Source of the DNA: Rahnella aquatilis CIP 78.65 = ATCC 33071 | GTDB taxonomy: Bacteria; Pseudomonadota; Gammaproteobacteria; Enterobacterales; Enterobacteriaceae | Length of the DNA: 64,000 nucleotides | Reading direction: 5' to 3' | Assembly (NCBI RefSeq): GCF_000241955.1 | Contig: NC_016818.1 | Location: 2,046,001-2,110,000, forward strand | Part shown: positions 17,573 through 38,632 of the stretch, in pieces | How positions within the stretch are numbered: position 1 is the stretch's first letter | Layout of the letters: each line of letters opens with the position of its first letter | Translations under genes and position numbers: made by a program | Notes under the pieces: model-generated | The model's input: the letters and a program-made list of their open reading frames with translations, nothing else | Databases searched by the model: none | What the model was told of the DNA's origin: nothing

Positions 17573-19567
17573 TCATCGGCCTCTGCGTCGCATCATCCAC
17601 ATGAAATAGGGCGAACCAATGAAGGTAGCGCAAAGTCCTGCGGGGATCTGGAAGGGATAAAGCAGGTTACGTCCCACCCAATCGGCAAAGAGTAACAAAA
17701 TTGCTCCCATGAGTGCCGATGCAATGAGCCGGGTGACTCCGCGCTGGAGCCCCATCATCACCACGATATGGGGTGCCAGCAACCCAACAAAACTAAGCGG
17801 GCCGGTCAGTAACGTAGCGCTGGCACAGAGTATCGCCGTCAGTAGTATAATCAGCAGCCGACTTCTGCCCACAGGCATGCCGGTGGCGCGCATCACGGTT
17901 TCTCCTAAGGGAAAACTGTCCAGCCAGCGAACCAGCAGCGGTAAAATCGCTAACGCAGCCAATAGAATCACGATAGCCACATACGCTTCGGGACTCGTCA
18001 CGCGATAAGTGGAACCCGCCATCCAGTTCATTAGCAGTAGCGAACGATCATCCCCACTGGCGATATATAAAGTAGAGAAGGTATTACAGGCGGTGCCGGT
18101 GGCTATACCGGTCAGCAGCACACGTTCAGGTGAGAAAGAGGATTTACGGCTGATCACTATCATCAATATCATGGTGGCCATCGCGCCTGACGTTGCCGCA
18201 AAGAGCATCCACGCCGGGCTTGATGTCTGTGTGAACATAAACAACACGACCACACCGAATGCTGCACCGGAGCTGATACCTAATACTTCCGGGCTGGCCA
18301 TCGCGTTAGTCGTCATTCTTTGCATCAGCGTGCCAGCCACTGCAAGCATAGCTCCGGCGGCGACAGCAGCCATTACTCTTGGCGCCCGCCATGTCAGTAA
18401 TTGCCGGAATTGATCACGCTGAGAAAACGCCCAACCTTCGGGCATACGCCCAAATGCCAGCGCTATCCAAATGAGAATAATCAGCAGTAAAAGCAGAAAC
18501 GCCATTAACCACCACGGTGACCGCACCCGTAACAGGGAAAAAGAAGACGCTGAGGATGAGGATGAAAGCTGTCGCTCTCTCAGATGTGGTATCAACAATA
18601 ACAACAGCGGAGCTCCTGTTATCGCTGTTGCCAGCCCGGTGGGGATAGTAACGCCGACATACTGGCTGAGAGTCTGTACAAGTAAATCGGTAAAACTCAG
18701 CATCAGTGCACCCGTGAGCGGCACCAGAAACAGGCGAACAGACTGACGATGAATGCCACACAATCTCACGGCGGCAGGCGCCGCCAGACCGATAAAACTG
18801 ATAACACCGACCCGGCTGACTACCATCGAACTTAACCACGCGGCAATCAACAACAACAGCAGACGGAAATAACGCACGGTGAGTCCCACACTGTGCGCTG
18901 TCTGCTCATTCATGCTCAGCAATTGCAGCGGCCGGCTCGTTGCGATAATCAGCAGGGTGACAATGCCCATTTGTAACGCCAGCCATTGCGCAGTATCCCA
19001 ATTATTTTGCTCCAGCGACCCGGTTTGCCAGATAAAAAGATCCATCAGCGCGGCATGATTGAACAACATCATCATCGAGCTGGCACTCGAACAGAAGAGC
19101 GTCACGACCATACCACCAAGGATCAGTGATAAGGGGGATAATCCGCGTCCTTTCGCCAGCAGCATCACCAGCATCAATGTTACTGCGGATCCACCAAAAG
19201 CAATCCATTCACGCCCCGCGGCTAACGCAAAGGGAAACCATAAACCCATGACGACCATGGCAAGCCAGGCTCCGGCGGAGATACCCAGCGTCGCAGGCTC
19301 AGCCAGCGGATTACGTAATACCTGCTGGAAAATAAATCCGGCCAGCCCCAATGCTGCGCCCGCCAGCAAGCTCACCGCCAGACGAGGGAGAAGACTATAG
19401 TGAAAAATAAGCTGCTTATACGAAGTATCGTCCGGTGACCATATCGCATCCGACAGATCATGGGAGGAAAAATGATAGGCTGGATTTTGCATTAACAGCA
19501 GAATGGAACCCATCAGTAATACGCCGGATAGCAAGGTAAAACTCATAACGCTAGCGCGGGATCTCAT
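17573..19567 (-). CDS. fhuB: FhuB, fused iron-hydroxamate ABC permease
   Basis: 664-residue inner-membrane permease made of two FecCD domains (residues ~30-330 and ~350-660), each with about ten membrane segments and a conserved GLAAPAAVRL / GLLAPHIVVM coupling region. Such fusion is specific to FhuB. I set the start at ATG 19567, whose ATGA overlaps the fhuD stop, a translational-coupling arrangement; an in-frame start at 19696 would lie deep inside fhuD. The partner ATPase FhuC is not encoded nearby. Confidence 0.93.
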   Translation of the reverse strand: MRSRASVMSFTLLSGVLLMGSILLLMQNPAYHFSSHDLSDAIWSPDDTSYKQLIFHYSLLPRLAVSLLAGAALGLAGFIFQQVLRNPLAEPATLGISAGAWLAMVVMGLWFPFALAAGREWIAFGGSAVTLMLVMLLAKGRGLSPLSLILGGMVVTLFCSSASSMMMLFNHAALMDLFIWQTGSLEQNNWDTAQWLALQMGIVTLLIIATSRPLQLLSMNEQTAHSVGLTVRYFRLLLLLIAAWLSSMVVSRVGVISFIGLAAPAAVRLCGIHRQSVRLFLVPLTGALMLSFTDLLVQTLSQYVGVTIPTGLATAITGAPLLLLLIPHLRERQLSSSSSASSFSLLRVRSPWWLMAFLLLLLIILIWIALAFGRMPEGWAFSQRDQFRQLLTWRAPRVMAAVAAGAMLAVAGTLMQRMTTNAMASPEVLGISSGAAFGVVVLFMFTQTSSPAWMLFAATSGAMATMILMIVISRKSSFSPERVLLTGIATGTACNTFSTLYIASGDDRSLLLMNWMAGSTYRVTSPEAYVAIVILLAALAILPLLVRWLDSFPLGETVMRATGMPVGRSRLLIILLTAILCASATLLTGPLSFVGLLAPHIVVMMGLQRGVTRLIASALMGAILLLFADWVGRNLLYPFQIPAGLCATFIGSPYFMWMMRRRGR

Positions 19568-20445
19568 ACCGTTTGCCCCGGCATGGCGGTTTCCAGCTCG
19601 CGAAGAAAATGCATAGCAGACAGCAACCCGCCGCTGGGATAAAGACGGTTTATGGCGCTGTAGCGGCCCTCGCGTATCAAAGGAATTGATTTCCAAAGTG
19701 GCGAACTTAACAGTGCCTCTACAGTATGCCGATCGCCGCGATTACTGAAGAAAACCAGCCGCGCTTCCGGCTGGCTTAGGAGATGATCCAGCCCAACGAT
19801 GGCTCCGCCCCAGGCGTTAGTTTTACCCTCATACGCATTATGAAAGCCCATTCTTTGCAGCAGGTCATCGTACATACCGTGACGACCAAAAAGTAACAAA
19901 TGGCGTCCGTCTTCGTTAATTCGGGCCAAAAATAGTGGACGTGTTCGAAATTTTTGCAAACGCACGCCGACATTATGTAACTGGTCTGACGCTTCCTGAA
20001 CCAGCTTTTCAGCACGTTCGCGTCTCGATGCGAAAACACCAAGCTGGGTTATCATCTGTTGCGCCAACAGCCAGGGCGAGCTGTCCGGCTGGAAAATGTC
20101 CATCGTGACTACCGGGGCAACGTGCTGCAGGCGGGTATTGACCTGCATCTGACTCCGGGTCGCGCAAATAAGGTCGGGTTTAAGCATCTCCAGCAACTCC
20201 AGATTGGGTTCATCAGGCAGCCCAATCTCACGTACAAACCCCGGGAGAGGCGGGTTTACAATAAAATTCTCATACCAACGTTTATTTGCAACAGCGAGTG
20301 GGATCACCCCAAGACCCAACAGGCTTTCGGTGATGGCTAAATCCAGCGAGACTATGCGTAATTGAGACGGGGCAACGGCGGCGAAGAGTGTTTTTGCCGG
20401 AAGCAACGTGAGGGCTGTCAGTAAAAGTGTTCGTCGGGTTAACAA
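19564..20445 (-). CDS. fhuD: FhuD, periplasmic hydroxamate-siderophore binding protein
   Basis: 293 residues. The N-terminal TRRTLLLTALTLLP with cleavage near LFAA looks like a Tat- or Sec-type signal. The mature part follows E. coli FhuD in layout: LRIVSLD, EPNLELLEMLKPDLI, WGGAIVGLDHL and the ending LLSAMHFLREL. It delivers ferric hydroxamates to FhuB. The start appears to be TTG at 20445 because an in-frame stop lies just upstream. It overlaps the fhuB start by 4 bases. Confidence 0.92.
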   Translation of the reverse strand: MLTRRTLLLTALTLLPAKTLFAAVAPSQLRIVSLDLAITESLLGLGVIPLAVANKRWYENFIVNPPLPGFVREIGLPDEPNLELLEMLKPDLICATRSQMQVNTRLQHVAPVVTMDIFQPDSSPWLLAQQMITQLGVFASRRERAEKLVQEASDQLHNVGVRLQKFRTRPLFLARINEDGRHLLLFGRHGMYDDLLQRMGFHNAYEGKTNAWGGAIVGLDHLLSQPEARLVFFSNRGDRHTVEALLSSPLWKSIPLIREGRYSAINRLYPSGGLLSAMHFLRELETAMPGQTV

Positions 20446-20469
20446 AACAGAATCCCATCAACTATAAAA

Positions 20470-20637: not shown

Positions 20638-20827
20638 CGGGTTATTTTAGTTTGGCTCCCCTGACTGGGATCGCCTTTGTCAGTAACTGGCTAATAAATA
20701 AGCTAAACCTGAGTTCCCTTTCTGACAAGACCACCAGAATGACCAACAATAGCTGTAGGTTACCTAAATCTGGTTTGAGCGCTCTGCTGTAGGGGGTGAT
20801 TATCCTGCGTGCGCTGGTGAGAGAGCG

Positions 20828-21257: not shown

Positions 21258-21273
21258 TCTACCATCTAGTAGG
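21258..21273 (+). promoter_or_regulatory. TetR-type operator, site 1 (osmC-like gene)
   Basis: TCTACCATCTAGTAGG matches the local consensus TCTACCAACTAGTAGG at 15 of 16 positions. It ends about 58 bases before the OsmC-like gene start. Core promoter hexamers here are poor. Confidence 0.75.
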
Positions 21274-21331
21274 TTGATTGCGTTTAGCACCAGCCTTATC
21301 TTTGAGATCACTCGACACTTCAGGAGTTGTC

Positions 21332-21889
21332 ATGACTAATTCAAAAAAACCTTTTGCTGACGCTAATGTTATTCGCGGTACACGAGAAGCTATTCGCCAG
21401 CAGCCAGAGCTGGGCAATCTCACCTTTAACATGAAGAGTAAATCCAACGGTGGGGTATCCGTCCGTGTGGAAACTCATGCGACTATCCAGAACGGCCAGG
21501 TTGATACCCGTCGCTCCGGAAAATTTGCTAATGTTGGCGATGAACCTGCTGATTTATCGGGTACTGATAGCGGTATGGGCCCGGCTGAGTACATTTTGCA
21601 GGCACTTGCCGGCTGTTATACCGCGACTCTGACTGTGATGGCGGCAGAAAAGGGCATTGAGCTTGATGGTATTGAACTTGACCTGAACTTCGACATTAAT
21701 CTGAACGGTTTCCTGGGTCTTGACGAAAAAGTTCGCAACGGGGCGAAAGCGATCCGTGTTGGCGTTAAGCTCTCCAGTCCGACCGCCAGCCGTGAACAGC
21801 TTGATGAAATGGTTCGTGCACTGCCAGAAAGCTCGCCGATCCACGATACGTTGGCGAACCCGGTCAATATTGATACTCGGTTGGTGTAG
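21332..21889 (+). CDS. OsmC-family peroxiredoxin-like protein
   Basis: 185 residues of the OsmC/Ohr superfamily, which uses two Cys to reduce organic hydroperoxides. The peroxidatic-type Cys in ALAGCYTATLTVMA is clear. The first conserved Cys of classical Ohr is not visible, so peroxidase activity is uncertain. The ATG at 21332 follows CAGGAG; an upstream frame extension overlaps the operator and is unlikely. It is the first member of the TetR-controlled thiol cluster. Confidence 0.85.
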   Translation: MTNSKKPFADANVIRGTREAIRQQPELGNLTFNMKSKSNGGVSVRVETHATIQNGQVDTRRSGKFANVGDEPADLSGTDSGMGPAEYILQALAGCYTATLTVMAAEKGIELDGIELDLNFDINLNGFLGLDEKVRNGAKAIRVGVKLSSPTASREQLDEMVRALPESSPIHDTLANPVNIDTRLV

Positions 21890-21902
21890 GTAAAGCTCAG
21901 AG

Positions 21903-21932
21903 AGGGAAATGCCTGAACACTGTCATTTCCCT
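21903..21932 (+). terminator. hairpin after the OsmC-like gene
   Basis: Perfect 9-bp stem AGGGAAATG / CATTTCCCT with a 12-base loop, 13 bases after the stop codon. It lacks a long T-run, so it may be a weak terminator or an mRNA-stabilising structure. Confidence 0.45.
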
Positions 21933-22037
21933 ACTGCCTGATGGCTATTAACTCCGACCAAAACGCGTTATCAGAGAAGGTTAAATTACTGTTGTGAACT
22001 GATGTCCCCTTGCAGGGAACAACAGGCGCAGATAATA

Positions 22038-22060
22038 TCTACCAACTAGTAGATTATAAT
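22038..22060 (+). promoter_or_regulatory. TetR-type operator, site 2, with -10 box (tetR autoregulation)
   Basis: TCTACCAACTAGTAGA (22038-22053; arms TCTAC/GTAGA) matches consensus at 15 of 16 positions. It is followed directly by a perfect -10 TATAAT (22055-22060), so the operator fills the spacer region of the regulator's own promoter. The -35 region is weak. Confidence 0.8.
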
Positions 22061-22072
22061 TGTGAGGATTAT

Positions 22073-22642
22073 ATGTCAGTCATGACACGAGAAAGGCTTC
22101 TGAATGAAGCGGACCATCTGATGCGCGAACGGGGTTACTCTGCATTCAGCTATGCTGATTTGTCAAAGAGCATTGGTATCACTAAGGCCAGTATTCATCA
22201 CCACTTCCCAACCAAAGACGTTTTGGGCGAACAAGTGGTGATTCAGGCCCATACCGATACCAAAAACCGATTTGAACAGATTGAAGCGACGGAGAATACG
22301 GTTGCGCAGATGCTTACCGCCTACGTAGAGCTTTTCATCGAAAGCTATCGCACGTCGCGTATGCCGCTGTGCTGTGCTTTGTCTTCGGAAATGGCCAATC
22401 TGCCACCGAATATCAGAGTACAGGCGACCGAATATTTCGATATGCAGATTGCCTGGCTGACCAAGATTGTCAGCCGTGGCGTTGATGCAGGGGAGCTGAC
22501 TGCTGACTTGCCGCCATCAAAAATGGCGCTGCTTATTTTGAATTTATGCGAAGGCGCTAGCGTTGTTTCCCGGGCAATTAACAAGCCTGAGCTTTTCAAC
22601 GATACGCTTGAACAGATCCTAATGATTGTTAAAAGAAAATAA
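22073..22642 (+). CDS. TetR-family regulator with a Cys-Cys pair (candidate electrophile/redox sensor)
   Basis: 189 residues. The TetR HTH is at ~26-50 (YADLSKSIGITKASIHHHF). The ligand domain carries adjacent Cys100-Cys101 in MPLCCALSSE and another Cys at ~159. Cys-based sensing is known for NemR-type TetR repressors that control OYE genes; applying it here is inference from context. ATG 22073 follows GTGAGGA. The operator overlaps its promoter, so it is probably autorepressed. The AhpD-like gene follows by 16 bases. Confidence 0.88.
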   Translation: MSVMTRERLLNEADHLMRERGYSAFSYADLSKSIGITKASIHHHFPTKDVLGEQVVIQAHTDTKNRFEQIEATENTVAQMLTAYVELFIESYRTSRMPLCCALSSEMANLPPNIRVQATEYFDMQIAWLTKIVSRGVDAGELTADLPPSKMALLILNLCEGASVVSRAINKPELFNDTLEQILMIVKRK

Positions 22643-22658
22643 TTCTGGAGATAACCCC

Positions 22659-22997
22659 ATGTTAGATTGGAATGAATACCGCTCAGAAGTGATGCAACGT
22701 GTTGGTGACCTGGGTAAATTGGCCCCGGATACGTTAAAAGGCGTTATGGCTCTGGGCAACGCCGGCAATAAGACCAACCTTCTTGGCGCGAAAGTGCGTG
22801 AACTGATTGCACTGGCTTGTGCGGTGACGACTCGCTGTGATGGTTGCATTGCCGTTCATGCCGAAGCTGCCGTTAAAGCTGGCGCCACAGAAGAAGAAAT
22901 TGCTGAAGCCCTGGGTGTGGCAATCAACCTGAATGCAGGTGCTGCCGTGGTCTATTCCGCACGTACGCTGGATGCGATTAAGCAACTGAAAGCGTAA
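22659..22997 (+). CDS. AhpD-like carboxymuconolactone decarboxylase-family protein
   Basis: 112-residue all-helical protein with the AhpD-type redox centre RCDGCIAVH (CxxC then His three residues on), typical of alkylhydroperoxidase D-like disulfide reductases. It acts in the cytosol, probably on peroxides or as a thiol-disulfide partner. ATG 22659 is preceded by GGAG. It is the second gene of the tetR operon, consistent with a redox response. Confidence 0.88.
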   Translation: MLDWNEYRSEVMQRVGDLGKLAPDTLKGVMALGNAGNKTNLLGAKVRELIALACAVTTRCDGCIAVHAEAAVKAGATEEEIAEALGVAINLNAGAAVVYSARTLDAIKQLKA

Positions 22998-23018
22998 TAG
23001 TTATCGCGTTGAAAATAT

Positions 23019-23042
23019 AAAAGGGCATTACTGCCCTTTTTT
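23019..23042. terminator. bidirectional terminator between ahpD-like and thioredoxin genes
   Basis: AAAAGGGCA pairs with TGCCCTTTTTT. The hairpin overlaps the stop codon of the convergent thioredoxin-like gene and can serve both strands. Confidence 0.75.
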
Positions 23043-23360
23043 CAGCTCTGACAATGCTTGCTGATAAAACCCTGCCGATTTAACACCCGGTATACGCTGG
23101 ACCAACTGCCCATCCTTGAACATCAGTACGGACGGCAGTCCCCAAATTTCATATTTGGTGGTCAGTACCGGTGCCAGATCCACATTCACTTTGCCGACTT
23201 TGACGTCGCTTTCAATCTGCTCGGCAAAATGGTTAAAAATGTCCTCGCTCATCTGACAAGGTGGGCACCAGGGGGCAGAGAAGCGCACCACCGCAACCCC
23301 TTCATGCCTCTCGATTTCTCTAAAATTATCTTCATTGTAAAGGGTTAATTCACGCATCAT
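23028..23360 (-). CDS. thioredoxin-like protein (CPPC active site)
   Basis: 110 residues of thioredoxin fold with active site FSAPWCPPCQMS at ~29-40 and the cis-Pro region GLPSVLMF. The CPPC motif replaces the usual CGPC and should shift redox potential. It is cytosolic and could recycle the AhpD/OsmC-type proteins encoded nearby. Its promoter carries operator site 3. The start ATG is doubled (23360 or 23357). Confidence 0.9.
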   Translation of the reverse strand: MMRELTLYNEDNFREIERHEGVAVVRFSAPWCPPCQMSEDIFNHFAEQIESDVKVGKVNVDLAPVLTTKYEIWGLPSVLMFKDGQLVQRIPGVKSAGFYQQALSELKKGQ

Positions 23361-23388
23361 TCACTCCAGCAGGATGTAACTTGATAGT

Positions 23389-23411
23389 AATTCTACCTAC
23401 CAGTTGGTAGA
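23389..23411 (-). promoter_or_regulatory. TetR-type operator, site 3, with -10 box (thioredoxin gene)
   Basis: On the - strand TCTACCAACTGGTAGG (23396-23411) matches consensus at 15 of 16 positions. It is followed by a -10-like TAGAAT (23389-23394). The operator thus lies immediately upstream of the -10 box of the thioredoxin promoter. Confidence 0.78.
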
Positions 23412-23645
23412 ATTAATTGACATAAAAAGCTATCATCAATAGAAAGGTACTTAAGCGAAGACAATGCCATTTTTTATCAATGGTTAAGCGTCACGTTATG
23501 TGAACGGGGTGCTGCGGATTATGATAATTCACTCCATCTCACTGAGAAAACTGACGTATCGTAAGGTCGGGATAGCTTGATAAAAAAGCGAGCCCATTTA
23601 TAAGGGGTCAGCCTACAGGGCAACCCCACTCCTTTACGGAAGGCG

Positions 23646-24491
23646 ATGATGGAAAGAACCCTGTCCAGTCGTATCAATGTGGGCAGTACAGCGCATGTGC
23701 TGCATACACAACCCCTGATGATGCGTCATATCACTGTTGATGAACCCACAATCATCCTGGTCCGCCATGGCAGGAAAATAATCCGCTGGGCGCAAGAGGA
23801 GATAACGCTGGAAGCGGGGGACGCGGTGGTCATCGGTGAGGGGCACTCTTTTGATATCATCAATACACCATCACCTTTAACGGGTACTTACGAAGCATCA
23901 TGGCTGAGTTTTTGTGCCGATTTCGTCCAAAACTACTGCTTCATGCATGCCCCACGTATGAGCATGCACGAAGCAAATAAAATGGCGAAGCCAGGCAACA
24001 GTTTTCGCCAGGCCTTTTATCACACCGCAGAGGCCATTACCGATACTGAAAACATACCTGAAAGTATCGTGGCCAGGCGTATGGAAGAGATGCTGAGTTG
24101 GCTGGATGAATACCGCATTTTCTTCGCGCTGAAACAGCATTCCGGACTGGCGATAAAAATCCGCAAACTCGTTGCAGCAGACATATCACAAGACTGGAAT
24201 ACTGCGCAGGTAGCGGCTGAATTGGGTATGTCGGCCACCACCCTGAGACGCCATCTGCATGCCGAAAATACGTCATTCACCCATCTGGTGACTGACATTC
24301 GCATGTGCCGCGCCCTGACACTTTTGCAGGTGACCGATCTTTCAGTCACCCGCATATCCCTGGAAGTCGGCTATGAAAATCCGTCTAAGTTCGCCGCCAG
24401 ATTTCGAACCCGCTTCGGATTCAGCCCCAGCCTGGTCCGGGTTTCCGGCCAGGCTATCGGCAACCTGGCTGCGGTTAGCGGCCCTGCGTAA
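23646..24491 (+). CDS. AraC-family transcriptional regulator
   Basis: 281 residues. The N-terminal cupin-like sensor part (~1-150) is followed by a double AraC HTH from ~175 (QVAAELGMSATTLRRHL; ISLEVGYENPSKFAARF; RFGFSPS). No recognisable target is divergent from it. Its last 17 bases overlap the convergent PEBP gene. No TetR operator precedes it, so it is likely outside the local regulon. Confidence 0.85.
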   Translation: MMERTLSSRINVGSTAHVLHTQPLMMRHITVDEPTIILVRHGRKIIRWAQEEITLEAGDAVVIGEGHSFDIINTPSPLTGTYEASWLSFCADFVQNYCFMHAPRMSMHEANKMAKPGNSFRQAFYHTAEAITDTENIPESIVARRMEEMLSWLDEYRIFFALKQHSGLAIKIRKLVAADISQDWNTAQVAAELGMSATTLRRHLHAENTSFTHLVTDIRMCRALTLLQVTDLSVTRISLEVGYENPSKFAARFRTRFGFSPSLVRVSGQAIGNLAAVSGPA

Positions 24492-25038
24492 TCTGAAGAT
24501 GCGCTTCGCCCAGTGAGTTCGCTTTTGCCATAAAGCCGACCAGGGCGGGCGTCGAGTCCGCCGTTATTCCCGGAAGTTTGTCGACACGAAGTGCCGTCAG
24601 CGTGATCTCATAACGGTGCGTTTCACCCTTCGGCGGGCAAGGGCCGCCATAACCCGGGATACCGAAATCAGTCCGGGTCTGAAGAGCCCCTTGCGGGAGA
24701 TTTTTGTTATCCGCCGTTATCCCGGCCGGTAACGAGTGAAGGGATGAGGGAATATTCACCACCTGCCAGTGGATCCAACCCAGACCTGTCGGCGCATCCC
24801 TGTCATAAATTTTGAGAGCGAAGCTTTGGGTTCCTGCCGGCGCGCCGCTCCAGTTAAAAGAGGGGGCAAGGTTTCCACCGCTGCACCCAAATCCATAAGG
24901 TGAACTCAGGGTCTGAGCTGCGGGGAAATGGTTTTTTTCAAGCTCATGGCTTGTCAGCGTAAAACTGGCTGAAAAAGCGACCTGGCTCGACAACGCCAGG
25001 CATAATGTACTGATAACAGTAAGGTGAAGTTTGGACAT
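24475..25038 (-). CDS. periplasmic YbhB/YbcL-type PEBP protein
   Basis: 187 residues. Signal peptide (cleavage near AFSA, residue ~23) followed by a phosphatidylethanolamine-binding (Raf-kinase-inhibitor-like) fold. Signature parts are APSFNWSGAPAGTQSFAL, YDRDAP, IHWQVVNIP and GPCPPKGETHRYEIT. The secreted form resembles E. coli YbcL. The molecular role in bacteria is unclear. It converges on the AraC gene with a 17-base overlap. Confidence 0.9.
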   Translation of the reverse strand: MSKLHLTVISTLCLALSSQVAFSASFTLTSHELEKNHFPAAQTLSSPYGFGCSGGNLAPSFNWSGAPAGTQSFALKIYDRDAPTGLGWIHWQVVNIPSSLHSLPAGITADNKNLPQGALQTRTDFGIPGYGGPCPPKGETHRYEITLTALRVDKLPGITADSTPALVGFMAKANSLGEAHLQITQGR

Positions 25039-25265
25039 TTACTCTTCTCCATCGGGGTGATTAATATCCCAATGATAAGGGGAGAGAACGACTCCTCGCC
25101 GCCCTGAACCGGCCAGTCTTAGCTCCATAACGCCCAATAATGATATTGGTAATTCCCTGATTTCACAGGATGACGACCCTCTCGCCGACGGTAGATCACC
25201 TTACACAGCATTCCCTGTGCCTGTCTCCGGTGACTAAAGGACAGCATGATTTGTTCTTTTACCTG

Positions 25266-25295
25266 TTGACCAATCAACTAGTAGGTAGGTATAGT
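25266..25295 (+). promoter_or_regulatory. OYE promoter with TetR-type operator, site 4, in the spacer
   Basis: -35 TTGACC (25266-25271), 18-bp spacer and -10 TATAGT (25290-25295). The operator-like CCAATCAACTAGTAGG (25270-25285; 13 of 16) fills the spacer, the classic layout for steric repression. Confidence 0.8.
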
Positions 25296-25363
25296 GCAGC
25301 CATACGCTTAACCGGCATCAGGAAGCGATCGTCAGCTCCCCGGCCCGCTAAGTATTAACTCCG

Positions 25364-25388
25364 GCCCCGGCGGGGCTTTTCTCTCTTT
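25364..25388 (+). terminator. terminator-like hairpin in the OYE leader
   Basis: GCCCC-GGC-GGGGC followed by TTTT and a pyrimidine run lies between the promoter at 25266-25295 and the OYE start at 25407. It could attenuate the transcript. The stem is short, so strength is uncertain. Confidence 0.45.
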
Positions 25389-25406
25389 CGCCTTGCGAGG
25401 TATACG

Positions 25407-26513
25407 ATGAGTAAGTTGTTCACCCCCTACAATCTGTCAGGCATGCAGTTAAAAAACCGTGTGGTCATGGCCCCGATGACCCGCACCCGCACAATGAACG
25501 ACGTGCCGGATGACGTCGTTGCACTTTACTACGCCCAGCGCGCCTCTGCGGGGCTGCTTATCACCGAAGGCATGCCTGTTTCTGAAGAAGGGCGCGGCTA
25601 TCTGTATACCCCGGGGATCTACAACGCTGCGCACGTTCAGGGCTGGCGCAAAGTGACCGATGCGGTACATGCGAAGGGCGGCCGTATTTTTGCTCAGTTG
25701 TGGCATGTGGGCCGGATGTCTCATACCTCAATTCAGCCGGGCAACATCGCGCCCGTTTCCGCCGGTACCGTACAAGCGGTTAACACCACCGTCTTTGCAC
25801 TGACAGAGTCTGGCGAACCGGGGCCTGTCGTTCCAGGCCAGCCGCGTGCGCTTGAAACCGCAGAAGTTCGACGCGTTACCGCTGACTTTGTCCATTCAGC
25901 GCGTCTGGCAATGGAGGCCGGGTTTGACGGCGTGGAAATCATGGCGGCGAACGGCTTCATTTTCGACCAGTTCCTCAGCAGTGAACTGAACCCTCGCACT
26001 GATGAATACGGTGGATCTGTGGAAAACCGTCAGCGGTTCCTGCTGGAAACGGTTGATGCCATCTCTGCGGCTATTGGTAGCAATAAGGTGGGCTTGCGCA
26101 TTTCACCGTTCGGGCGGCTTTACGACCTGGCTCCTTATGAAGGTGAAGAAGAGATTTGGGCCAGTATCGCTGCGGCCCTCGGCCAACGTGAGCTGGCTTA
26201 TGTGCACCTCTATTATCAACCTGTTTATACCCAGGCACCGGTACCTGCCGGTTTCAAAGCCGCGTTCCGTAAAACTCTGGGGGGCACCGTTATTGCCGCC
26301 GGCGGCTTCACCCGCGAGATTGCCGAAACCGCACTTGAGGCAGACGAACTGGATCTTGTTGCGTTTGGCGTGCCGTACATCGCCAACCCTGATCTGGTCG
26401 AAAGAATGCAGAACGGCTGGCCGCTGGCTGAAAGCGATCGCACGACGTATTACGGCGTGACGGGGGCGCTGGAAAAAGGCTACACCGATTATCCCGCCTG
26501 GGAAGCCAACTAA
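25407..26513 (+). CDS. old yellow enzyme-family ene-reductase with altered active-site histidine
   Basis: 368-residue FMN oxidoreductase of the NemA/OYE group, which reduces electrophilic alkenes, quinones and nitro compounds with NADPH. The TIM-barrel hallmarks are VVMAPMTR, FAQLWHVGRMSH and DEYGGSVENR. The substrate-binding pair, usually His-x-x-Asn/His, reads EIMAANGF: the first His is Met, although the Asn remains. The paralog at 59291 keeps the His. It heads an operon with a FrnE-like gene and an SDR gene under operator site 4. Confidence 0.9.
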   Translation: MSKLFTPYNLSGMQLKNRVVMAPMTRTRTMNDVPDDVVALYYAQRASAGLLITEGMPVSEEGRGYLYTPGIYNAAHVQGWRKVTDAVHAKGGRIFAQLWHVGRMSHTSIQPGNIAPVSAGTVQAVNTTVFALTESGEPGPVVPGQPRALETAEVRRVTADFVHSARLAMEAGFDGVEIMAANGFIFDQFLSSELNPRTDEYGGSVENRQRFLLETVDAISAAIGSNKVGLRISPFGRLYDLAPYEGEEEIWASIAAALGQRELAYVHLYYQPVYTQAPVPAGFKAAFRKTLGGTVIAAGGFTREIAETALEADELDLVAFGVPYIANPDLVERMQNGWPLAESDRTTYYGVTGALEKGYTDYPAWEAN

Positions 26514-26594
26514 CGCCACGTAGCTGGTGGTATTTGCGGTGCCCACATAAAGAGGCACCGCCAGACGACATTAATGAGGTATTCAGGAGCCAAT

Positions 26595-27296
26595 ATGCAA
26601 ACCCTTAAGTCGATTATTACGATAGATATCTGGTCAGATCTGGTCTGCCCCTGGTGCTGGATAGCCAAAAAGCGTTTCGAACAGGGCCTTGCCGCCTTTG
26701 AACACAAAGAACAGGTCGTGGTCCGCCACCACAGTTTCCGTATTTCCGGCGACCGGCCTGCCGTGCCGTTCCGCAAAGCCCTTTACAAGAAGTTTGGCGG
26801 GGAACATGGGGCGGAACTGATGATGAATCAGGTGGGCACGGCCGGGAAGGCAGAAGGGCTCCAGTATAACTTTGACACCATGCTCTTTGGCGATACCGAA
26901 GATGCCCATACGCTGCTCGCGGCTGCACGTCACGCCAATATGGGCGACGCCATGGCAGAACGGTTTTATCGGGCCAGTGTGACTGAGGGCCGTTCCATTT
27001 TCGATCCGCAGGAGCTCATTGCGTTAGCTACAGAAGTGGGCATGTCCAGAGCCGACGCTGAAAGTGCCCTTGCCAATGAGGCCTTCCGTGCATCGGTGGC
27101 TGAAGATGAAGCCCATGCCCGGTCGATCGGGGTCAGCGGTGTCCCGCTGTTTCTGCTCAATGAAAAATATGCCATCAGCGGCGCGCAATCTGCGGACAAC
27201 TTCCTGAACGCGCTGAAGCAAGTCTGGGAAGAAAAAGCGGCTGAACTGGCAAAAACCGACGGCCAGACCTGCGGCGCTGACGGTTGCAGCATCTGA
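26595..27296 (+). CDS. FrnE-like DsbA-family oxidoreductase
   Basis: 233 residues, cytosolic (no signal peptide). Thioredoxin fold with a CPWC active site near residue 17 ([14 protein letters not shown]), a helical insertion, and the cis-Pro segment [11 protein letters not shown]. The C-terminus has extra cysteines in [11 protein letters not shown], typical of FrnE proteins, which handle protein disulfides under oxidative stress. ATG 26595 follows CAGGAG. Second gene of the OYE operon. Confidence 0.9.
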
Positions 27297-27358
27297 AACC
27301 TGAACGAGCCGGCTGCATGACTGCCGGCAAATCTACCCTGCAAATAACGGAGTTCAAA

Positions 27359-28132
27359 ATGAGCGATGACTTTAAAGGCAAAAAACTGCTTGTCGTGGGT
27401 GGCACCAGCGGCATGGGTCTGGAAACGGCGCGTATGGTGCTGAAAGCCGGTGGCAGCGTGGTACTGACGGGCAATAAAAAAGACAAGGCAGAAGCGGTTC
27501 AGAAAGAGCTGAGCCCACTGGGTTCCGTGTCCGTGATTGCGGCAAACCTGATGACCGAAGAGGGCATGAACGCCATTCGTCAGGAGATTAATGCTAATCA
27601 TCGCGATATTAGCCTGATGGTCAATGCGGCCGGGATCTTCATGCCGAAAGGCTTTACCGAGCATTTGGAAGCCGATTACGACATGTACCTGATGTTGAAC
27701 CGGGCAACCTTCTTCATCACGCAGGACGTGGTGAAGAACATGCTGGCCGACGGCCGTGAAGGGGCGATTGTGAACGTGGGCTCCATTGGCGCGCAAGCCG
27801 CACTCGGCGACTCACCGGCTTCCGCGTACTCCATGGCCAAAGCCGGTCTCCATGCCTTGACACGCAACCTGGCCATTGAGCTGGCCAGTGCGGGTATCCG
27901 CGTGAACGCGGTCTCGCCAGGGATCGTGCATACCCCGATTTATGAAGGCTTCATGGCGAAAGAAGACATTGCCGGCGCAATGCAATCGCTGAACGCTTTC
28001 CATCCGCTGGGGCGTGTCGGCACGCCGGAAGATGTGGCCAATACCATCTTCTTCCTGTTGTCCGACAAAGCCTCTTGGGTGACTGGCGCCATCTGGGATG
28101 TCGATGCCGGTATCATGGCCGTTCGCAGATAA
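27359..28132 (+). CDS. SDR-family oxidoreductase
   Basis: 257 residues. Glycine motif [11 protein letters not shown] at ~14-24, NAAG at ~90, active-site Ser and YSMAK at ~160, and an SDR tail [11 protein letters not shown]. The ATG at 27359 follows ACGGAG. Third gene of the OYE operon (63-base gap), so it may reduce or detoxify carbonyl products handled by the ene-reductase. The substrate is not known. Confidence 0.9.
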
Positions 28133-28151
28133 GTTCGTCGTAACCTCGCAA

Positions 28152-28174
28152 AGCCGCCCCATGATGGGGCGGCT
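28152..28174 (+). terminator. hairpin after the OYE operon
   Basis: Perfect 9-bp GC-rich stem AGCCGCCCC / GGGGCGGCT, loop ATGAT, between the SDR gene and a hydrolase gene. It has no T-run, so it may only partly separate the two. Confidence 0.5.
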
Positions 28175-28219
28175 GATAGGCATCTTGCTTGTAATTCAAC
28201 CATTCTGAAAGTTAACATA

Positions 28220-28972
28220 ATGAAAAAATTGAAATTTACCTTCAAAAATGCAGAAGGTGAGGAACTTGCCGGGTTGCTTGAATTGCCAGAAAATCCAAAA
28301 GCCTTTGCCCTGTTGGCGCACTGCTTTACCTGCGGGAAGGATCTGAAAGGAGCTGCACGCATTGCCAGGAAACTGACAGAAAATTCAATTGCGGTGCTTC
28401 GCTTTGATTTCACCGGGTTAGGCAACAGCGAAGGCGATTTTTCCAATACTAATTTTTCCTCGAATATTTCTGACCTGCTGTGCGCGGTCGATTATCTTCG
28501 TCGGGAATACGAGGCTCCTTCGCTGCTGATTGGTCACAGCCTTGGCGGTTCGGCAATCCTCTCTATTGCAGCCAAAGTGCCTGAAGCCAGAGCGGTCGTA
28601 ACCATCGGTTCGCCAGGCGAATTGACGCATGTACAGCGGTTGTTCAAAGACAATATCGAAGATATCAGGAACCATGGCGCTTTCCCGGTAGAGCTTGCAG
28701 GCCGGGTATTCACGCTCAAAAAGCAAATGCTGGATAACATTCAGGAGCATAAAATAGCGGAGAAGGTATTTACCATGAATAAGCCGCTGCTGATTTTTCA
28801 TGCTCCCAATGATGATACCGTGCTGATTGAACAGGCAGAGAAAATTTTTAAAGCCGCCAGACACCCCAAAAGCTTTATCTCACTGGGTGAAGCAGATCAT
28901 CTTCTGACGCATCCTCAGGATGCGGAATATGTTGCCGGGATTATCGTTGCCTGGAGTTCTGCTTACATTTAA
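28220..28972 (+). CDS. alpha/beta hydrolase of the type often fused to OsmC
   Basis: 250 residues. Alpha/beta-hydrolase core with the LLAHCFTCGKDLKGA region, the FDFTGLGNSEG turn and the nucleophile in GHSLGG (~Ser 110); catalytic His in EADHLLTHP. The AHCFTC element is characteristic of the N-terminal half of bifunctional hydrolase/OsmC proteins. Here it stands alone, while a separate OsmC-like gene sits 7 kb upstream. It may be partly co-transcribed with the OYE operon. Substrate unknown. Confidence 0.82.
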   Translation: MKKLKFTFKNAEGEELAGLLELPENPKAFALLAHCFTCGKDLKGAARIARKLTENSIAVLRFDFTGLGNSEGDFSNTNFSSNISDLLCAVDYLRREYEAPSLLIGHSLGGSAILSIAAKVPEARAVVTIGSPGELTHVQRLFKDNIEDIRNHGAFPVELAGRVFTLKKQMLDNIQEHKIAEKVFTMNKPLLIFHAPNDDTVLIEQAEKIFKAARHPKSFISLGEADHLLTHPQDAEYVAGIIVAWSSAYI

Positions 28973-29082
28973 AGGGCGTGTAAAGCTTCGTGAAGCTGCA
29001 GGTGCTATCGTTGGCCACTGAATAAACGGGCGTAGCATTTTGGTTGCACATACAAGACTGCGTAGCATGCTTTCTTTACGCG

Positions 29083-29109
29083 AAAAAAGCCCTGCTTAGA
29101 TGCAGGGCT
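29083..29109 (-). terminator. intrinsic terminator of the - strand thioredoxin-like gene
   Basis: Read on the - strand: AGCCCTGC, loop ATCTAA, GCAGGGCT, then TTTTT. It lies ~110 bases after the stop of the 29217-29711 gene. Confidence 0.75.
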
Positions 29110-29216
29110 AAGGGCATTGTTGCTATGGTTTATTTTTATTATTTCCCTGGCATTGCTCAACTTCCAGGTTTATTACCTTCAAGTTGAGATTCAATTAATT
29201 TAACTTTAACGCTCTC

Positions 29217-29711
29217 TTATTTTCCTGGAAAAATTGAAGTCACTTCGCGGGCGGTATCGACCAGAAGCTCACCGTTTTTGTACCTCTCGCTCACTTCTCC
29301 ATTCTTGCCGGTAGCATTTTCAGGTCGTTCAATAAACTGCCCCAGCGGAGTCGCGTTCTCATCCAGTACCACGGCAAACGGAATTTTGACTTTATCGACA
29401 CCAAAGTGTGCCTTAAAGACGGCTTCAGCCTTGTCGCGGGTGATAATACCCAGACGTATTGCTGGCGCTGACGCGGCAATGGCATGGATTACAGGCAAGT
29501 TTTTATGGCAGTCGGGGCACCACATTTCAGCAGCTACCAGAATGCTGTACGAACCCGGAAGTTGCGAGAGCTTACTAATGACATCGTCAGGTAATGCCTC
29601 GTTGGCAAGCCCCTCAAAATGCCGCAATGCGTTGCGGTCTTCTTCTGCTCCGCTGCCAACAAATTCGTTATAATCTGATGCTGCTTCGAGCAGTACGTTG
29701 AAATCTTGCAT
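29217..29711 (-). CDS. thioredoxin-family protein (WCPDC active site)
   Basis: 164-residue cytosolic thioredoxin-like protein. The active site is AAEMWCPDCHKNLP (~60-72) and the cis-Pro is in KIPFAVVLDEN. The family is often annotated as thioredoxin family protein and is suggested to act on bacillithiol- or glutathione-type mixed disulfides, an inference here. The start ATG follows AGGAG. It is divergent from an EamA transporter gene across operator site 5. Confidence 0.85.
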   Translation of the reverse strand: MQDFNVLLEAASDYNEFVGSGAEEDRNALRHFEGLANEALPDDVISKLSQLPGSYSILVAAEMWCPDCHKNLPVIHAIAASAPAIRLGIITRDKAEAVFKAHFGVDKVKIPFAVVLDENATPLGQFIERPENATGKNGEVSERYKNGELLVDTAREVTSIFPGK

Positions 29712-29834
29712 ATGTTCTCCTTTGTTAGTAGCGGGTCTACGGCTTCACATAAATCTGGCAATGATAAAGGTCAATGCTCCAGGCATGACCTGAAAAGGGG
29801 TACCATTTTAGTGTCTGGCTACCATAAGTAGATA

Positions 29835-29863
29835 TTGCCATCCTACCTACTAATTGATAGATT
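29835..29863 (+). promoter_or_regulatory. EamA promoter with TetR-type operator, site 5, in the spacer
   Basis: -35 TTGCCA (29835-29840), 17-bp spacer, -10-like TAGATT (29858-29863). The reverse-oriented operator CCTACTAATTGATAGA (29846-29861; 14 of 16) fills the spacer. It could also affect the divergent thioredoxin-like gene. Confidence 0.75.
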
Positions 29864-29898: not shown

Positions 29899-30747
29899 AT
29901 GGGGCGGTCTGTTGGATTCAAGATAGTGATAGCAATGATGGCATTCGCAGCCAATTCTGTGCTCTGTCGGATTGCGTTGAAAGGCGAACATATTGACCCG
30001 GTGACGTTCAGTGACCTTCGCCTGATGAGCGGGGCGGTGGTCTTGTTACCACTGTTGTTGAGACGTGAGGGGAAAAAGCAGGGCGTCTGGAGCTTGAAAA
30101 GCGGGTTCTTTCTTATGGCCTACGCCCTGTGTTTCTCCCTTGCCTATATCCATTTGGATACAGGAACAGGTGCTTTGCTCTTGTTTGGCGTTGTGCAACT
30201 GGCGATGGTGGCTCATGGCCTTTTCCATGGGGAAAGGCTGTCTTTTTCCAGAGCAACGGGGCTTGGGCTGGCTGTAGCCGGCATGGCTGCTCTTCTCTTA
30301 CCTGGTGCCAAAACGCCCCCCTTGGGCAGCGCTGTTCTGATGGCGCTTTCAGGCCTTGCCTGGGCGGCTTATACCCTTTGCGGAAAGCGCTCTCCCAATG
30401 CAGCGCAGGCCACTGCGGCAAATTTCATCCTTGCTGTACCTTTTGCCCTGGTGTTGTCGCCGTTCATTAGCCAGGGAGCGCACTTCGACGGTATCGGAAT
30501 TCTCCTGGCAGTGCTCTCTGGTGCGGGTGCTTCTGCAGGAGCCTATGTGCTGTGGTATTCACTTTTACCTCGTCTTGAGTCTGTTGCAGCCAGTACGGTT
30601 CAGTTGAGTGTGCCCTGTCTGGCGATGCTGGGAGGCGTAACATTTTTGGGCGAGTCATTGAGCCTCAGAATGGCATTTTCAACGCTGGCAGTCCTTGCGG
30701 GCATTCTGTTGGTGATCAAGGCACCGGGTCAGAAAATACGGCAGTGA
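29899..30747 (+). CDS. EamA-family (DMT) transporter
   Basis: 282-residue inner-membrane protein with ten hydrophobic segments arranged as two EamA repeats (~5-140 and ~150-275). Family members usually export metabolites or amino-acid derivatives. The gene starts 38 bases after operator site 5, so export of an electrophile conjugate or thiol compound is a reasonable but unproven guess. Confidence 0.85.
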   Translation: MGRSVGFKIVIAMMAFAANSVLCRIALKGEHIDPVTFSDLRLMSGAVVLLPLLLRREGKKQGVWSLKSGFFLMAYALCFSLAYIHLDTGTGALLLFGVVQLAMVAHGLFHGERLSFSRATGLGLAVAGMAALLLPGAKTPPLGSAVLMALSGLAWAAYTLCGKRSPNAAQATAANFILAVPFALVLSPFISQGAHFDGIGILLAVLSGAGASAGAYVLWYSLLPRLESVAASTVQLSVPCLAMLGGVTFLGESLSLRMAFSTLAVLAGILLVIKAPGQKIRQ

Positions 30748-33640: not shown

Positions 33641-34627
33641 ATGAAGATGGAATGCTCTATGCCTAAACGTATAAAAAACAGCCGCTGGTCAGGTTACGAT
33701 CCCCGCTATATCTACTCTCTCGTCGTCCGACGTTACTTTGTTGAGATGAAGACCAAAACTGAGATTGCTGAAGAACTCGAGATTTCGAGATTTAAAGCGG
33801 CGCGTCTTATCGATGAGGCAATAAAGGAAGAGTATGTGAAGTTTCTCTTTCCAAAGCAGCAACTGCTTGACGAAGAGATCGCACTTAATCTCTGCGGAAA
33901 GTATGGTCTGCAGAAGGCAATCGTGCTTTCCGTGTCAGAATCCTGGTCCAATCAGGAAGAACTGAATGAGAAGCTGGGTGGTATCACTGCAAGTTATCTC
34001 AACAATAATCTCGCTGAGGGAATGAAGGTTGGTATTGCCTGGGGACGCGTTTTATCCAGCACAGTGAGTCAACTCACCAGCTTGCCGGCATTAGATGTTG
34101 TTCAGCTATCTGGCGTTCATCCCGGCATTGAATTTAGCCAGGGCCCGATCGACCTTATCCACAGACTGTCGACTATCTCTCAGGGCAAGGCTCATCCTAT
34201 GTATGTGCCGATGTGGGTGGATGATGAAAGCCTGGCCCAAAAACTGGCCAGTGATCCGGCTGTGGTGGATACCCAACAATATTATTCTCAGCTGGATGTT
34301 GTCATCACCGGTATTGGCGCCTGGAAAACGGGCTCATCCAGTTTGTGTGATATTTTTCCCGAGTCGTGGCAAAAAAATCTGTTTGAGAAAGATATCGCTG
34401 CGGATGTCTGCATTACTCTCGTTAACAGTAAAGGCGAGATCCTTGATAGCCCGATGAGCCGTCTTGGGTTTGGTATTTCAACCGAACAATTGCGTAACAC
34501 GAAAACCGTGATTGGTGTGGCGGGGGGAGAACAGAAGTATGAAGGCATCGTCGCTTCCCTGAAGTCAGGCCTTTTAGATGTGTTAATCACTGACTTCGAT
34601 ACTGCGGTGAAGCTTGTCAATTCCTGA
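33641..34627 (+). CDS. SorC/DeoR-family sugar-binding transcriptional regulator
   Basis: About 325 residues. N-terminal HTH (~35-65: TKTEIAEELEISRFKAARLIDEA) and a SorC-type sugar-phosphate-binding domain from ~75 (GMKVGIAWGRVL, VVITGIGAW, IGVAGGEQKYEGIVASLKSG). Such proteins bind phosphorylated sugars and control nearby PTS or polyol operons. Start candidates are 33641, 33647 and 33659. It directly precedes the PTS operon and is its likely regulator. Confidence 0.9.
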   Translation: MKMECSMPKRIKNSRWSGYDPRYIYSLVVRRYFVEMKTKTEIAEELEISRFKAARLIDEAIKEEYVKFLFPKQQLLDEEIALNLCGKYGLQKAIVLSVSESWSNQEELNEKLGGITASYLNNNLAEGMKVGIAWGRVLSSTVSQLTSLPALDVVQLSGVHPGIEFSQGPIDLIHRLSTISQGKAHPMYVPMWVDDESLAQKLASDPAVVDTQQYYSQLDVVITGIGAWKTGSSSLCDIFPESWQKNLFEKDIAADVCITLVNSKGEILDSPMSRLGFGISTEQLRNTKTVIGVAGGEQKYEGIVASLKSGLLDVLITDFDTAVKLVNS

Positions 34628-34887
34628 TTGAAATAGATCCCGGAACATCAGCAACAGGGGCGTAGCCCGCGCCCTTGATCACCTTCCTCTCAGGCATGCA
34701 TTAGGCACTTCTATCAGTCATTCAGTAAACCCTCATGACTTAGATCAGAGCATGGCCAAATCCTCTGACATAGGTCAGTTCGCATATATAAACCTTCAAA
34801 AAATCTATTATCCGTCTGATTTATAAGAAAAACTTTACTTCCCCTCTCCGGTTGACTTGATTGATCTAAAAGATGAATTACTCGATG

Positions 34888-34903
34888 TTGCTCATGTGAG
34901 CAA
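34888..34903. promoter_or_regulatory. SorC-type operator candidate (perfect inverted repeat)
   Basis: TTGCTCA-TG-TGAGCAA has perfect 7-bp arms and a 2-bp centre. It is about 100 bases upstream of the paired sites at the PTS promoter, so looping between sites is conceivable. Confidence 0.65.
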
Positions 34904-34986
34904 TTATTTGCGTGCACTTATGCATTTATTTTGTGATCAGCTTATAACTTTTGCATGTTTTCTGTTTGCGCGGAAAATTGGCATGC

Positions 34987-35029
34987 TATAACTGCTCATG
35001 TGATCGATAACAATTGCTCTAATGAGCAA
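34987..35029 (+). promoter_or_regulatory. PTS operon promoter with two SorC-type operators
   Basis: -10-like TATAAC at 34987-34992 is overlapped by CTGCTCATGTGATCGA (34992-35007). It is followed 22 bases on (start to start) by the palindrome TTGCTCTAATGAGCAA (35014-35029). Both lie just upstream of the IIA start at 35047. Confidence 0.65.
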
Positions 35030-35046
35030 AAAGGCGAGGTGAAAAG

Positions 35047-35496
35047 GTGAGTACAGTCACTATTAATGTTGCAGATGGTGCAGCATTCAAAAATTACGAT
35101 GAGGTGCTGCAGCACATCCATGAAAAGCTGTATTCAGAAGGGATAGTGAAAAAGACCTATCTGGCAGCACTGCGTGAACGCGAAGCCCTGTATCCAACCG
35201 GTATTTTGCTTGATGGTTATTCTGTGGCGATCCCACATTGCGACAGCAACCAGGCCAACAGCCCGTCGATTTATATTATTCGCTTACCTGAACCGGTTCA
35301 GGTTGATCAGGCTGATGGCGACGATAAATTGTGGGTCAAACTCATTATCAATTTGGTCGTTACCGATCCGGCTAATCAGCTGCAACTGCTGAAGGCCCTT
35401 TTTAGTCATCTTCAAATGGAAGACTTTTATCAAAATTTACTTGAGCTTCCTTCCGAGAAAGCGCAGGCACTTTTTATTTCCACCGTCATGCAATAA
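35047..35496 (+). CDS. PTS IIA component, fructose/galactitol-type
   Basis: 149 residues starting at GTG 35047 behind AGGCGAGG. The phosphorylatable His is in YSVAIPHCDS (~Residue 64), the usual IIA fold of the Fru/Gat class. It accepts phosphate from HPr and passes it to the IIB encoded next. It starts the PTS operon. Confidence 0.9.
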   Translation: MSTVTINVADGAAFKNYDEVLQHIHEKLYSEGIVKKTYLAALREREALYPTGILLDGYSVAIPHCDSNQANSPSIYIIRLPEPVQVDQADGDDKLWVKLIINLVVTDPANQLQLLKALFSHLQMEDFYQNLLELPSEKAQALFISTVMQ

Positions 35497-35511
35497 GAGT
35501 TCAGGAGCATA

Positions 35512-35808
35512 ATGATGATTAATATCCTCGTAGCCTGCGGGAGCGGTGTCGCAACGTCAACTATCGCTGCTGATGAAGTGAAATCCGTGTGTACAGAATA
35601 TGGCATTACTCAGTTCAAAATAAATAAATGCAGCATGTCAGAACTTCCTTCTGAATTACAGAATGCTGATGTTGTGTTAACCACGAATAACTACAAAGGT
35701 GATATCGGAAAACCGCATATGAGTGTGGCCGGGTTTATCACCGGGATTAATGAAGCTGTGTTACGAAAAAAACTAGGGGATTTATTAACAGAGCTGGCTA
35801 AAAACTAA
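35512..35808 (+). CDS. PTS IIB component, galactitol-type
   Basis: 98 residues. The phosphocysteine lies in ILVACGSGVATSTIAAD (Cys ~9), and the fold and length fit galactitol IIB proteins. It takes phosphate from IIA and phosphorylates the sugar at the IIC. The start is ATG 35512 or the adjacent ATG. It is 15 bases after the IIA gene. Confidence 0.9.
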   Translation: MMINILVACGSGVATSTIAADEVKSVCTEYGITQFKINKCSMSELPSELQNADVVLTTNNYKGDIGKPHMSVAGFITGINEAVLRKKLGDLLTELAKN

Positions 35809-35832
35809 TAAGAAAACACAGGGGATGACAAG

Positions 35833-37086: not shown

Positions 37087-37110
37087 TTTTAAAAATGAGG
37101 TTTGCTTACC

Positions 37111-37755: not shown

Positions 37756-37772
37756 GTATCCAACATACATTC

Positions 37773-37794
37773 ACGCGCTCTTAATTGAGCGCGT
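37773..37794 (+). terminator. intercistronic hairpin in the PTS operon
   Basis: Perfect stem ACGCGCTC / GAGCGCGT with loop TTAATT between the epimerase and SDR genes. There is no T-run; it may stabilise or attenuate the message. Confidence 0.45.
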
Positions 37795-37864
37795 AATCAT
37801 TATGTAGACCGCAGACGTGGGGGATTTCTCTCACGTTAAGTACAAAGATTCAGGAGAACAACCG

Positions 37865-38617: not shown

Positions 38618-38632
38618 CCGGAGGAAAAAAAA

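What the first reader, a model, noticed from the sequence alone, without database searches (positions are those of the whole stretch)
21258..29863. Five matching operators define a compact TetR redox regulon
Sites at 21258, 22038, 23396, 25270 and 29846 match TCTACCAACTAGTAGG at 15, 15, 15, 13 and 14 of 16 positions. At the OYE and EamA promoters, and by -10 position at tetR itself, the operator fills the -35/-10 spacer. All served genes concern thiols or electrophiles: OsmC-like, AhpD-like, thioredoxin, ene-reductase, FrnE-like, SDR, exporter. The regulator carries a Cys-Cys pair. The sequence shows the sites; the single-regulator model is inference.
Basis: partly seen in the sequence, partly recalled or inferred. 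Interest (0 to 1): 0.9.

Follow-up and report, generated by a model that had tools for sequence, protein, structure and literature searches.

The report
Operators of a garlic-toxin defence regulon
Five matching DNA switches sit before genes that very probably protect this bacterium from the sulfur toxins of garlic and onion, and the same switch recurs beside related regulator genes in many other bacteria.

Summary
All five sites exist with the stated match counts; chance gives 0.30 hits per window. The better description is a 20-bp palindrome, YCWACCWACYRGTWGGTWGR. In the whole genome, 4 of 4 places with at most 2 mismatches lie in this cluster. A matrix built only from these five sites found 40 sites in 10 related clusters (163.6 kb), 40 of 40 within 350 bp upstream of a cluster gene.

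Ten of the 11 cluster genes on the plasmid of the onion isolate Pantoea ananatis PNA 97-1R have counterparts here (gor is missing), and that cluster also carries five sites. From memory, it is the thiosulfinate (allicin) tolerance 'alt' cluster with TetR regulator AltR; the paper tools failed, so name and biology are recalled. Regulator residues C100, C101 and C159 occur in 16 of 16 regulators of 48% identity or more.

Of 12 loci with regulators 23-48% identical, 10 keep a strong site within 2.5 kb of the regulator gene. The single-regulator model is well supported by comparison; binding and inducer are untested. Ordinary in kind; the operator map and its reach are the interesting part.

The parts
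21258..21277 (.). operator 1, upstream of osmC-like gene
   Evidence: 20-mer, 1 mismatch; site centre 51-61 bp before the OsmC match in 9 of 10 other clusters, the tenth (L045) being cut by the contig end
21332..21889 (+). OsmC-family protein
   Evidence: PF02566, E 1.3e-18
22038..22057 (.). operator 2, before tetR itself; overlaps TATAAT at 22055-22060
   Evidence: 16-mer 1 mismatch; core TCTAYCWACTAGTAG in 8 of 8 aligned clusters
22073..22642 (+). TetR-family regulator (AltR-like) with C100, C101, C159
   Evidence: PF00440 and PF16925; relatives
22659..22997 (+). AhpD-like carboxymuconolactone decarboxylase family protein
   Evidence: PF02627, TIGR00778
23028..23360 (-). thioredoxin
   Evidence: PF00085
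23392..23411 (.). operator 3, upstream of the thioredoxin gene; exact 20-mer match
25266..25295 (+). OYE promoter-like TTGACC-18-TATAGT
   Evidence: hexamers largely conserved
25270..25289 (.). operator 4, in the spacer of the OYE promoter
25407..26513 (+). old yellow enzyme (alkene reductase)
   Evidence: PF00724
26595..27296 (+). DsbA/FrnE-like oxidoreductase
   Evidence: PF01323; no site-like sequence in the gap before it
27359..28132 (+). short-chain dehydrogenase
   Evidence: PF13561; no site-like sequence in the gap before it, so probably in the OYE unit
28220..28972 (+). alpha/beta hydrolase; no own site here
   Evidence: PF12146; best 5.6 bits in the gap before it
29217..29711 (-). thioredoxin-like protein (Thioredoxin_9)
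   Evidence: PF14595
29835..29863 (+). EamA promoter-like TTGCCA-17-TAGATT
29842..29861 (.). operator 5, between the divergent Trx9 and EamA genes
29899..30747 (+). EamA/DMT exporter
   Evidence: PF00892
30878..32101 (+). MalY/PatB-type C-S lyase, downstream of EamA, no own site
   Evidence: counterparts annotated MalY/PatB; syntenic; 2.4 bits in the gap before it

Best explanation
This is an alt-type thiosulfinate (allicin) tolerance cluster governed by one TetR repressor (AltR-like, 22073-22642). A dimer, perhaps two overlapping dimers, binds the 20-bp palindrome at five places, including before its own gene, and blocks RNA polymerase by covering the -35/-10 region. Thiosulfinates react with one or more of C100, C101 and C159, the repressor lets go, and the cell makes thioredoxins, OsmC, AhpD-like, DsbA-like, ene-reductase and SDR proteins, the exporter and the C-S lyase. 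Shown by computation: the sites, their conservation, their linkage with this regulator subfamily, gene-set match with the Pantoea cluster, conserved cysteines. Inferred: binding, repression, inducer, sensing by cysteine.
For: Sites above chance and confined to the cluster. Held-out test: 40 of 40 sites in 10 clusters lie within 350 bp upstream of a cluster gene; five of those clusters have regulators 99% identical to each other, so about six lineages. The P. ananatis PNA 97-1R plasmid cluster has counterparts of 10 window genes at 52-90% identity and five sites of 21.9-27.6 bits. In 59 related genomes 22 of 38 places with 2 mismatches or fewer lie near a relative of this regulator or in a split piece of the cluster (my count). 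10 of 12 loci with regulators 23-48% identical have a site of 20 bits or more within 2.5 kb of the regulator gene. The helix SIHHHFPTK, or a form with one to three changes, goes with the operator; E. coli NemR differs in helix and promoter box. C100, C101, C159 are in 16 of 16 regulators of 48% identity or more.
Against: No binding or expression data. The name alt/AltR and the link to thiosulfinates are recalled; no relevant paper could be opened. The window lacks gor. The matrix control is imperfect: of 200 column-permuted matrices the median found 2 sites, but 10 found 10 or more and one found 40; the three highest correlate with the true matrix (0.68-0.85), the next ones less. In 59 relatives the backward control pattern has 50 places against 38 for the pattern, so numbers alone show nothing, and 16 of the 38 have no listed relative of this regulator nearby (the list was cut). 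L051 and L055 carry the HHHFPTK helix but no site above 15.0 bits. Seven other TetR matches of the genome could bind.
Confidence: 0.76

Rival explanations
1. A general electrophile (NemR-like) regulon: the regulator senses quinones, aldehydes or hypochlorite, and the link to Allium toxins is incidental.
For: OYE, SDR and thioredoxins suit many electrophiles. Distant relatives sit beside cupin, SDR, OsmC, cytochrome b/molybdopterin or, by eye from the translations, NAD(P)-binding protein genes. NemR is rank 7 among the folds, and a palindrome before E. coli nemR, TAGACCGACTGGTCTA, shares the core ACCRACTGGT (that it is the NemR box is recalled). 8 of 15 listed... carriers outside onion include Brassica and Gypsophila Pantoea and many clinical plasmids.
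Against: The gene set matches the onion-isolate plasmid cluster, and 12 of the 18 listed Pantoea and Erwinia records name onion or Allium. A C-S lyase and OsmC point to organosulfur compounds (inference). The regulator is only 21-22% identical to NemR.
Confidence: 0.18
2. The operators are bound by another factor (the AraC-family protein at 23646-24491 or a second TetR), not by the 22073-22642 protein.
For: An AraC gene lies within the cluster; the genome has 7 further TetR matches.
Against: AraC is absent from the 10 clusters with 60-66% regulators, which keep the operators; sites go with this TetR subfamily in distant bacteria.
Confidence: 0.04
3. The repeats are chance or a mobile repeat element.
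For: The cluster is mobile.
Against: 6 hits against 0.30 in shuffles; in matching promoters of different clusters the flanks diverge while the palindrome is kept; 40 of 40 sites lie upstream of cluster genes.
Confidence: 0.01

Closest known systems
alt (allicin/thiosulfinate tolerance) cluster of Pantoea ananatis PNA 97-1R with AltR (name and function recalled)
   Same: OsmC, C-S lyase, EamA exporter, two thioredoxin-type proteins, TetR, AhpD-like, OYE, DsbA, SDR, at 52-90% identity; five operators
   Different: window lacks gor and has an alpha/beta hydrolase, AraC and YbhB; Trx and OYE have separate operators; chromosomal here (the window lies in a 4.86-Mb contig), on a plasmid there
NemR-nemA of Escherichia coli
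   Same: TetR repressor before an ene-reductase; similar fold; core ACCRACTGGT shared with the palindrome before nemR
   Different: 21-22% identity, different recognition helix, different outer half-sites. NemR C106 falls at the Pro98 column in one alignment but not in another, so cysteine correspondence is uncertain
Allicin-resistance islands of Pseudomonas (recalled)
   Same: recalled to hold similar redox genes with a TetR; pKLC102 has SDR, TetR, CMD and DsbA genes with two strong sites
   Different: regulator 39.8% identical, without C101 and C159; smaller gene set on pKLC102

Membership tests
alt thiosulfinate-tolerance cluster | gene set and regulator of the P. ananatis plasmid cluster | tested here: met
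   10 of its 11 genes have counterparts in the window; gor has none
alt thiosulfinate-tolerance cluster | confers growth in thiosulfinate/allicin | not testable with these tools
   needs an experiment
TetR family | TetR_N HTH plus all-helical ligand domain | tested here: met
   PF00440 E 5.8e-11; model pLDDT 89.9, TetR-family structures as top PDB matches
TetR family | palindromic operator at own and target promoters | tested here: met
   as sequence; binding itself untested
NemR | orthology to E. coli NemR | tested here: not met
   21-22% identity, different helix and operator flanks
NemR | cysteine corresponding to C106 (role recalled) | tested here: inconclusive
   two alignments place C106 differently
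single-regulator regulon | same operator before the target units and co-occurrence with the regulator | tested here: met
single-regulator regulon | the protein binds, and derepression coordinates all units | not testable with these tools
   needs gel shift and reporters

The most novel reading that the evidence does not exclude
A subfamily of TetR proteins with the helix SIHHHFPTK (or close forms) recognises nearly one and the same operator, about YCWACCWACTAGTWGGTWGR, across Gamma- and Alphaproteobacteria, Nitrospira, a cyanobacterium and a planctomycete, often beside redox or thiol genes; the alt lineage became a thiosulfinate sensor by gaining C101 and C159 beside an older C100 (C100 in 9 of 11 distant members, C101 in 1, C159 in none). 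The operator would then be a search key for organosulfur and electrophile regulons.
Probability: 0.5. Interest if true: 0.6.

Novelty: new member of a known kind. Interest (0 to 1): 0.5.

Why it matters
It defines, in one sequence pattern, which genes answer to the regulator of a mobile cluster whose TetR gene (E 1e-40 or better) is on 545 of 72,556 plasmid records, 280 of them Klebsiella. It makes the sensing of garlic and onion toxins directly testable and gives a pattern for finding such regulons elsewhere.

Tried and rejected
Rejected: chance repeats; NemR orthology; AraC as the binder. A search of 369 genomes of the class at E 1e-30 found only the own regulator, so it added no lineage. 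A shorter degenerate pattern, CTACCNACNNGTNG, was no better: 6 hits in the genome, 4 in the cluster, against 19 for its backward control. The promoter scan gave fewer hits than shuffles, so promoters other than OYE and EamA are not claimed. Flank DNA 19400-20450 matched only the own genome among 14 of the genus, so island borders could not be set. An earlier reading that the regulator lacks a cysteine at the NemR C106 position is withdrawn: it depends on the alignment.

Literature could not be checked: the paper search or paper reading failed. I therefore make no claim that the operator is unpublished.
Full report
What was checked. The 16-mer of the finding is present at all five places with exactly the stated match counts, and shuffles of the window give 0.30 hits on average against 6 found. 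Aligning the sites shows that the natural unit is a 20-bp palindrome, YCWACCWACYRGTWGGTWGR, at 21258, 22038, 23392, 25270 and 29842 with 1, 3, 0, 1 and 2 mismatches; the only other window place at 4 or fewer is 50483. I derived this pattern after looking at the window and other clusters, so it is descriptive. In the own genome it has 4 places at 2 mismatches or fewer, all 4 in the cluster, and 9 at 3 or fewer, 5 of them in the cluster; the backward control has 7 places at 3 or fewer.

The genes. Pfam and NCBIfam give OsmC, TetR, AhpD-like CMD, thioredoxin, OYE, DsbA-like, SDR, alpha/beta hydrolase, Thioredoxin_9 and EamA. A MalY/PatB-type C-S lyase follows EamA. The gaps before DsbA, SDR, alpha/beta hydrolase and MalY hold nothing site-like (best 5.6 bits), consistent with operons from OYE and EamA (inference).

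Relatives. The genus is probably Rahnella: G002 and G008 have contigs of the same length as named Rahnella contigs. The regulator is nearly identical in Raoultella, Enterobacter, Rahnella and Serratia, and 61-66% identical in Buttiauxella, Proteus, Pectobacterium, Erwinia, Vibrio furnissii, Kluyvera and Tatumella. At E 1e-40 or better it is on 545 of 72,556 plasmid records, 280 of them Klebsiella. It lies in 3 of 14 genomes of its genus (G000, G002, G008). The cluster of P. ananatis PNA 97-1R, an onion isolate, has 11 genes, of which 10 match window genes at 52-90% identity; gor has no counterpart in the window. I recall this as the alt cluster for thiosulfinate tolerance; this is memory, not a call. 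Of the 18 Pantoea and Erwinia records listed, 12 name onion or Allium.

Held-out test. A matrix from the five window sites only was run on ten clusters with 60-66% regulators (L036, L042-L049, L072; 163,620 bases). The near-identical clusters L035, L037-L041, L071 and the short L008 were left out. All 40 hits of 12 bits or more lie within 350 bp upstream of a cluster gene. The regulators of L036 and L046-L049 are 99% identical to that of L036, so there are about six lineages. Of 200 symmetric column permutations the mean was 3.07 hits and the median 2, but 10 gave 10 or more and one gave 40; the top three resemble the true matrix (correlation 0.85, 0.75, 0.68), the next ones less. The P. ananatis cluster, fetched later, has five sites of 21.9-27.6 bits.

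Promoters. In eight aligned OYE promoters the operator lies between TTGACC (7 of 8) and TATAGT (6 of 8; TATATT in one); Proteus differs at both. Before tetR the core TCTAYCWACTAGTAG is kept in 8 of 8. In the ten 60-66% clusters Trx and OYE share one operator, whereas in the window type AraC and YbhB lie between them and each side has its own.

Distant regulators. I scanned 12 loci not chosen for having sites (L050-L056, L085-L089; regulators 23-48% identical). Ten have at least one site of 20 bits or more, 17 such sites in all, each within 2.5 kb of the regulator gene; L051 (best 15.0) and L055 (13.8) do not. L057-L061, matching over the HTH only, were scanned only with the 16-mer and one variant: L061 had one hit far from the regulator, the other four none. 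In 59 related genomes 38 places have 2 mismatches or fewer; I count 22 near an AltR-like gene or in a split piece of the cluster (G000 4, G002 3, G008 4, G033 5, G001 3, G024 1, G049 2). For 16 I know of none, though the listing was cut. The backward control has 50 places, so the evidence is where the sites lie, not how many there are. The other ten genus members have no site. L090-L093 were then fetched because they hold sites, so they illustrate and do not test.

Helix and sensing. The segment SIHHHFPTK is shared, or differs by one to three residues, in the distant regulators aligned; L051 and L055 have HHHFPTK yet no strong site, which counts against a strict code. C100, C101 and C159 are in 16 of 16 regulators of 48% identity or more (11, 5 more); among 11 distant ones C100 is in 9, C101 in 1, C159 in none. 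The place of NemR C106 relative to these depends on the alignment. The AlphaFold model (pLDDT 89.9) puts C100 and C101 in helix 99-105 and C159 in helix 148-169; distances were not measured. The nearest folds are Legionella 3on4, Agrobacterium 2g7s and NemR 4yze.

Judgement. Best explanation: an AltR-type repressor controlling a thiosulfinate-tolerance regulon through five operators. Shown: sites, conservation, linkage. Inferred: binding, inducer, cysteine chemistry.

Noticed in passing
window 33641-39193: Sugar-type genes (by eye: SorC-type regulator, PTS IIC, epimerase, SDR, hexuloisomerase) follow the cluster; hxlB and sugar genes also adjoin it on the E. coli and Pantoea plasmids.
   Followed up: no
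window 20645-20744: About 100 bases match E. coli DNA at 90-92% in at least 12 of 19 records with a match (4 of the 19 not listed), mostly without an annotated gene.
   Followed up: no
window 17573-20445: FhuB/FhuD-like uptake genes (by eye) next to the cluster; DNA 19400-20450 is found in no other of 14 genus genomes.
   Followed up: partly
window 59294-60388: A second old yellow enzyme gene, 54% identical to the cluster's, lies on the - strand; the only window place of 10 bits or more outside the five sites is 50483, so it has no operator.
   Followed up: partly
L046 14423-15617: The MalY-like gene of the Vibrio furnissii cluster matches in three pieces and looks broken; described only.
   Followed up: no
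L089 3955-7004, L093 2427-4755: AltR-like regulators with the operator beside cytochrome b and molybdopterin-protein genes (annotated in L089, by eye in L093).
   Followed up: partly
L090 2112-4567, L091 4462-4957: In another genus member the operator lies before a small secreted protein gene that by eye looks YdgH/BhsA-like; no family search was made.
   Followed up: partly
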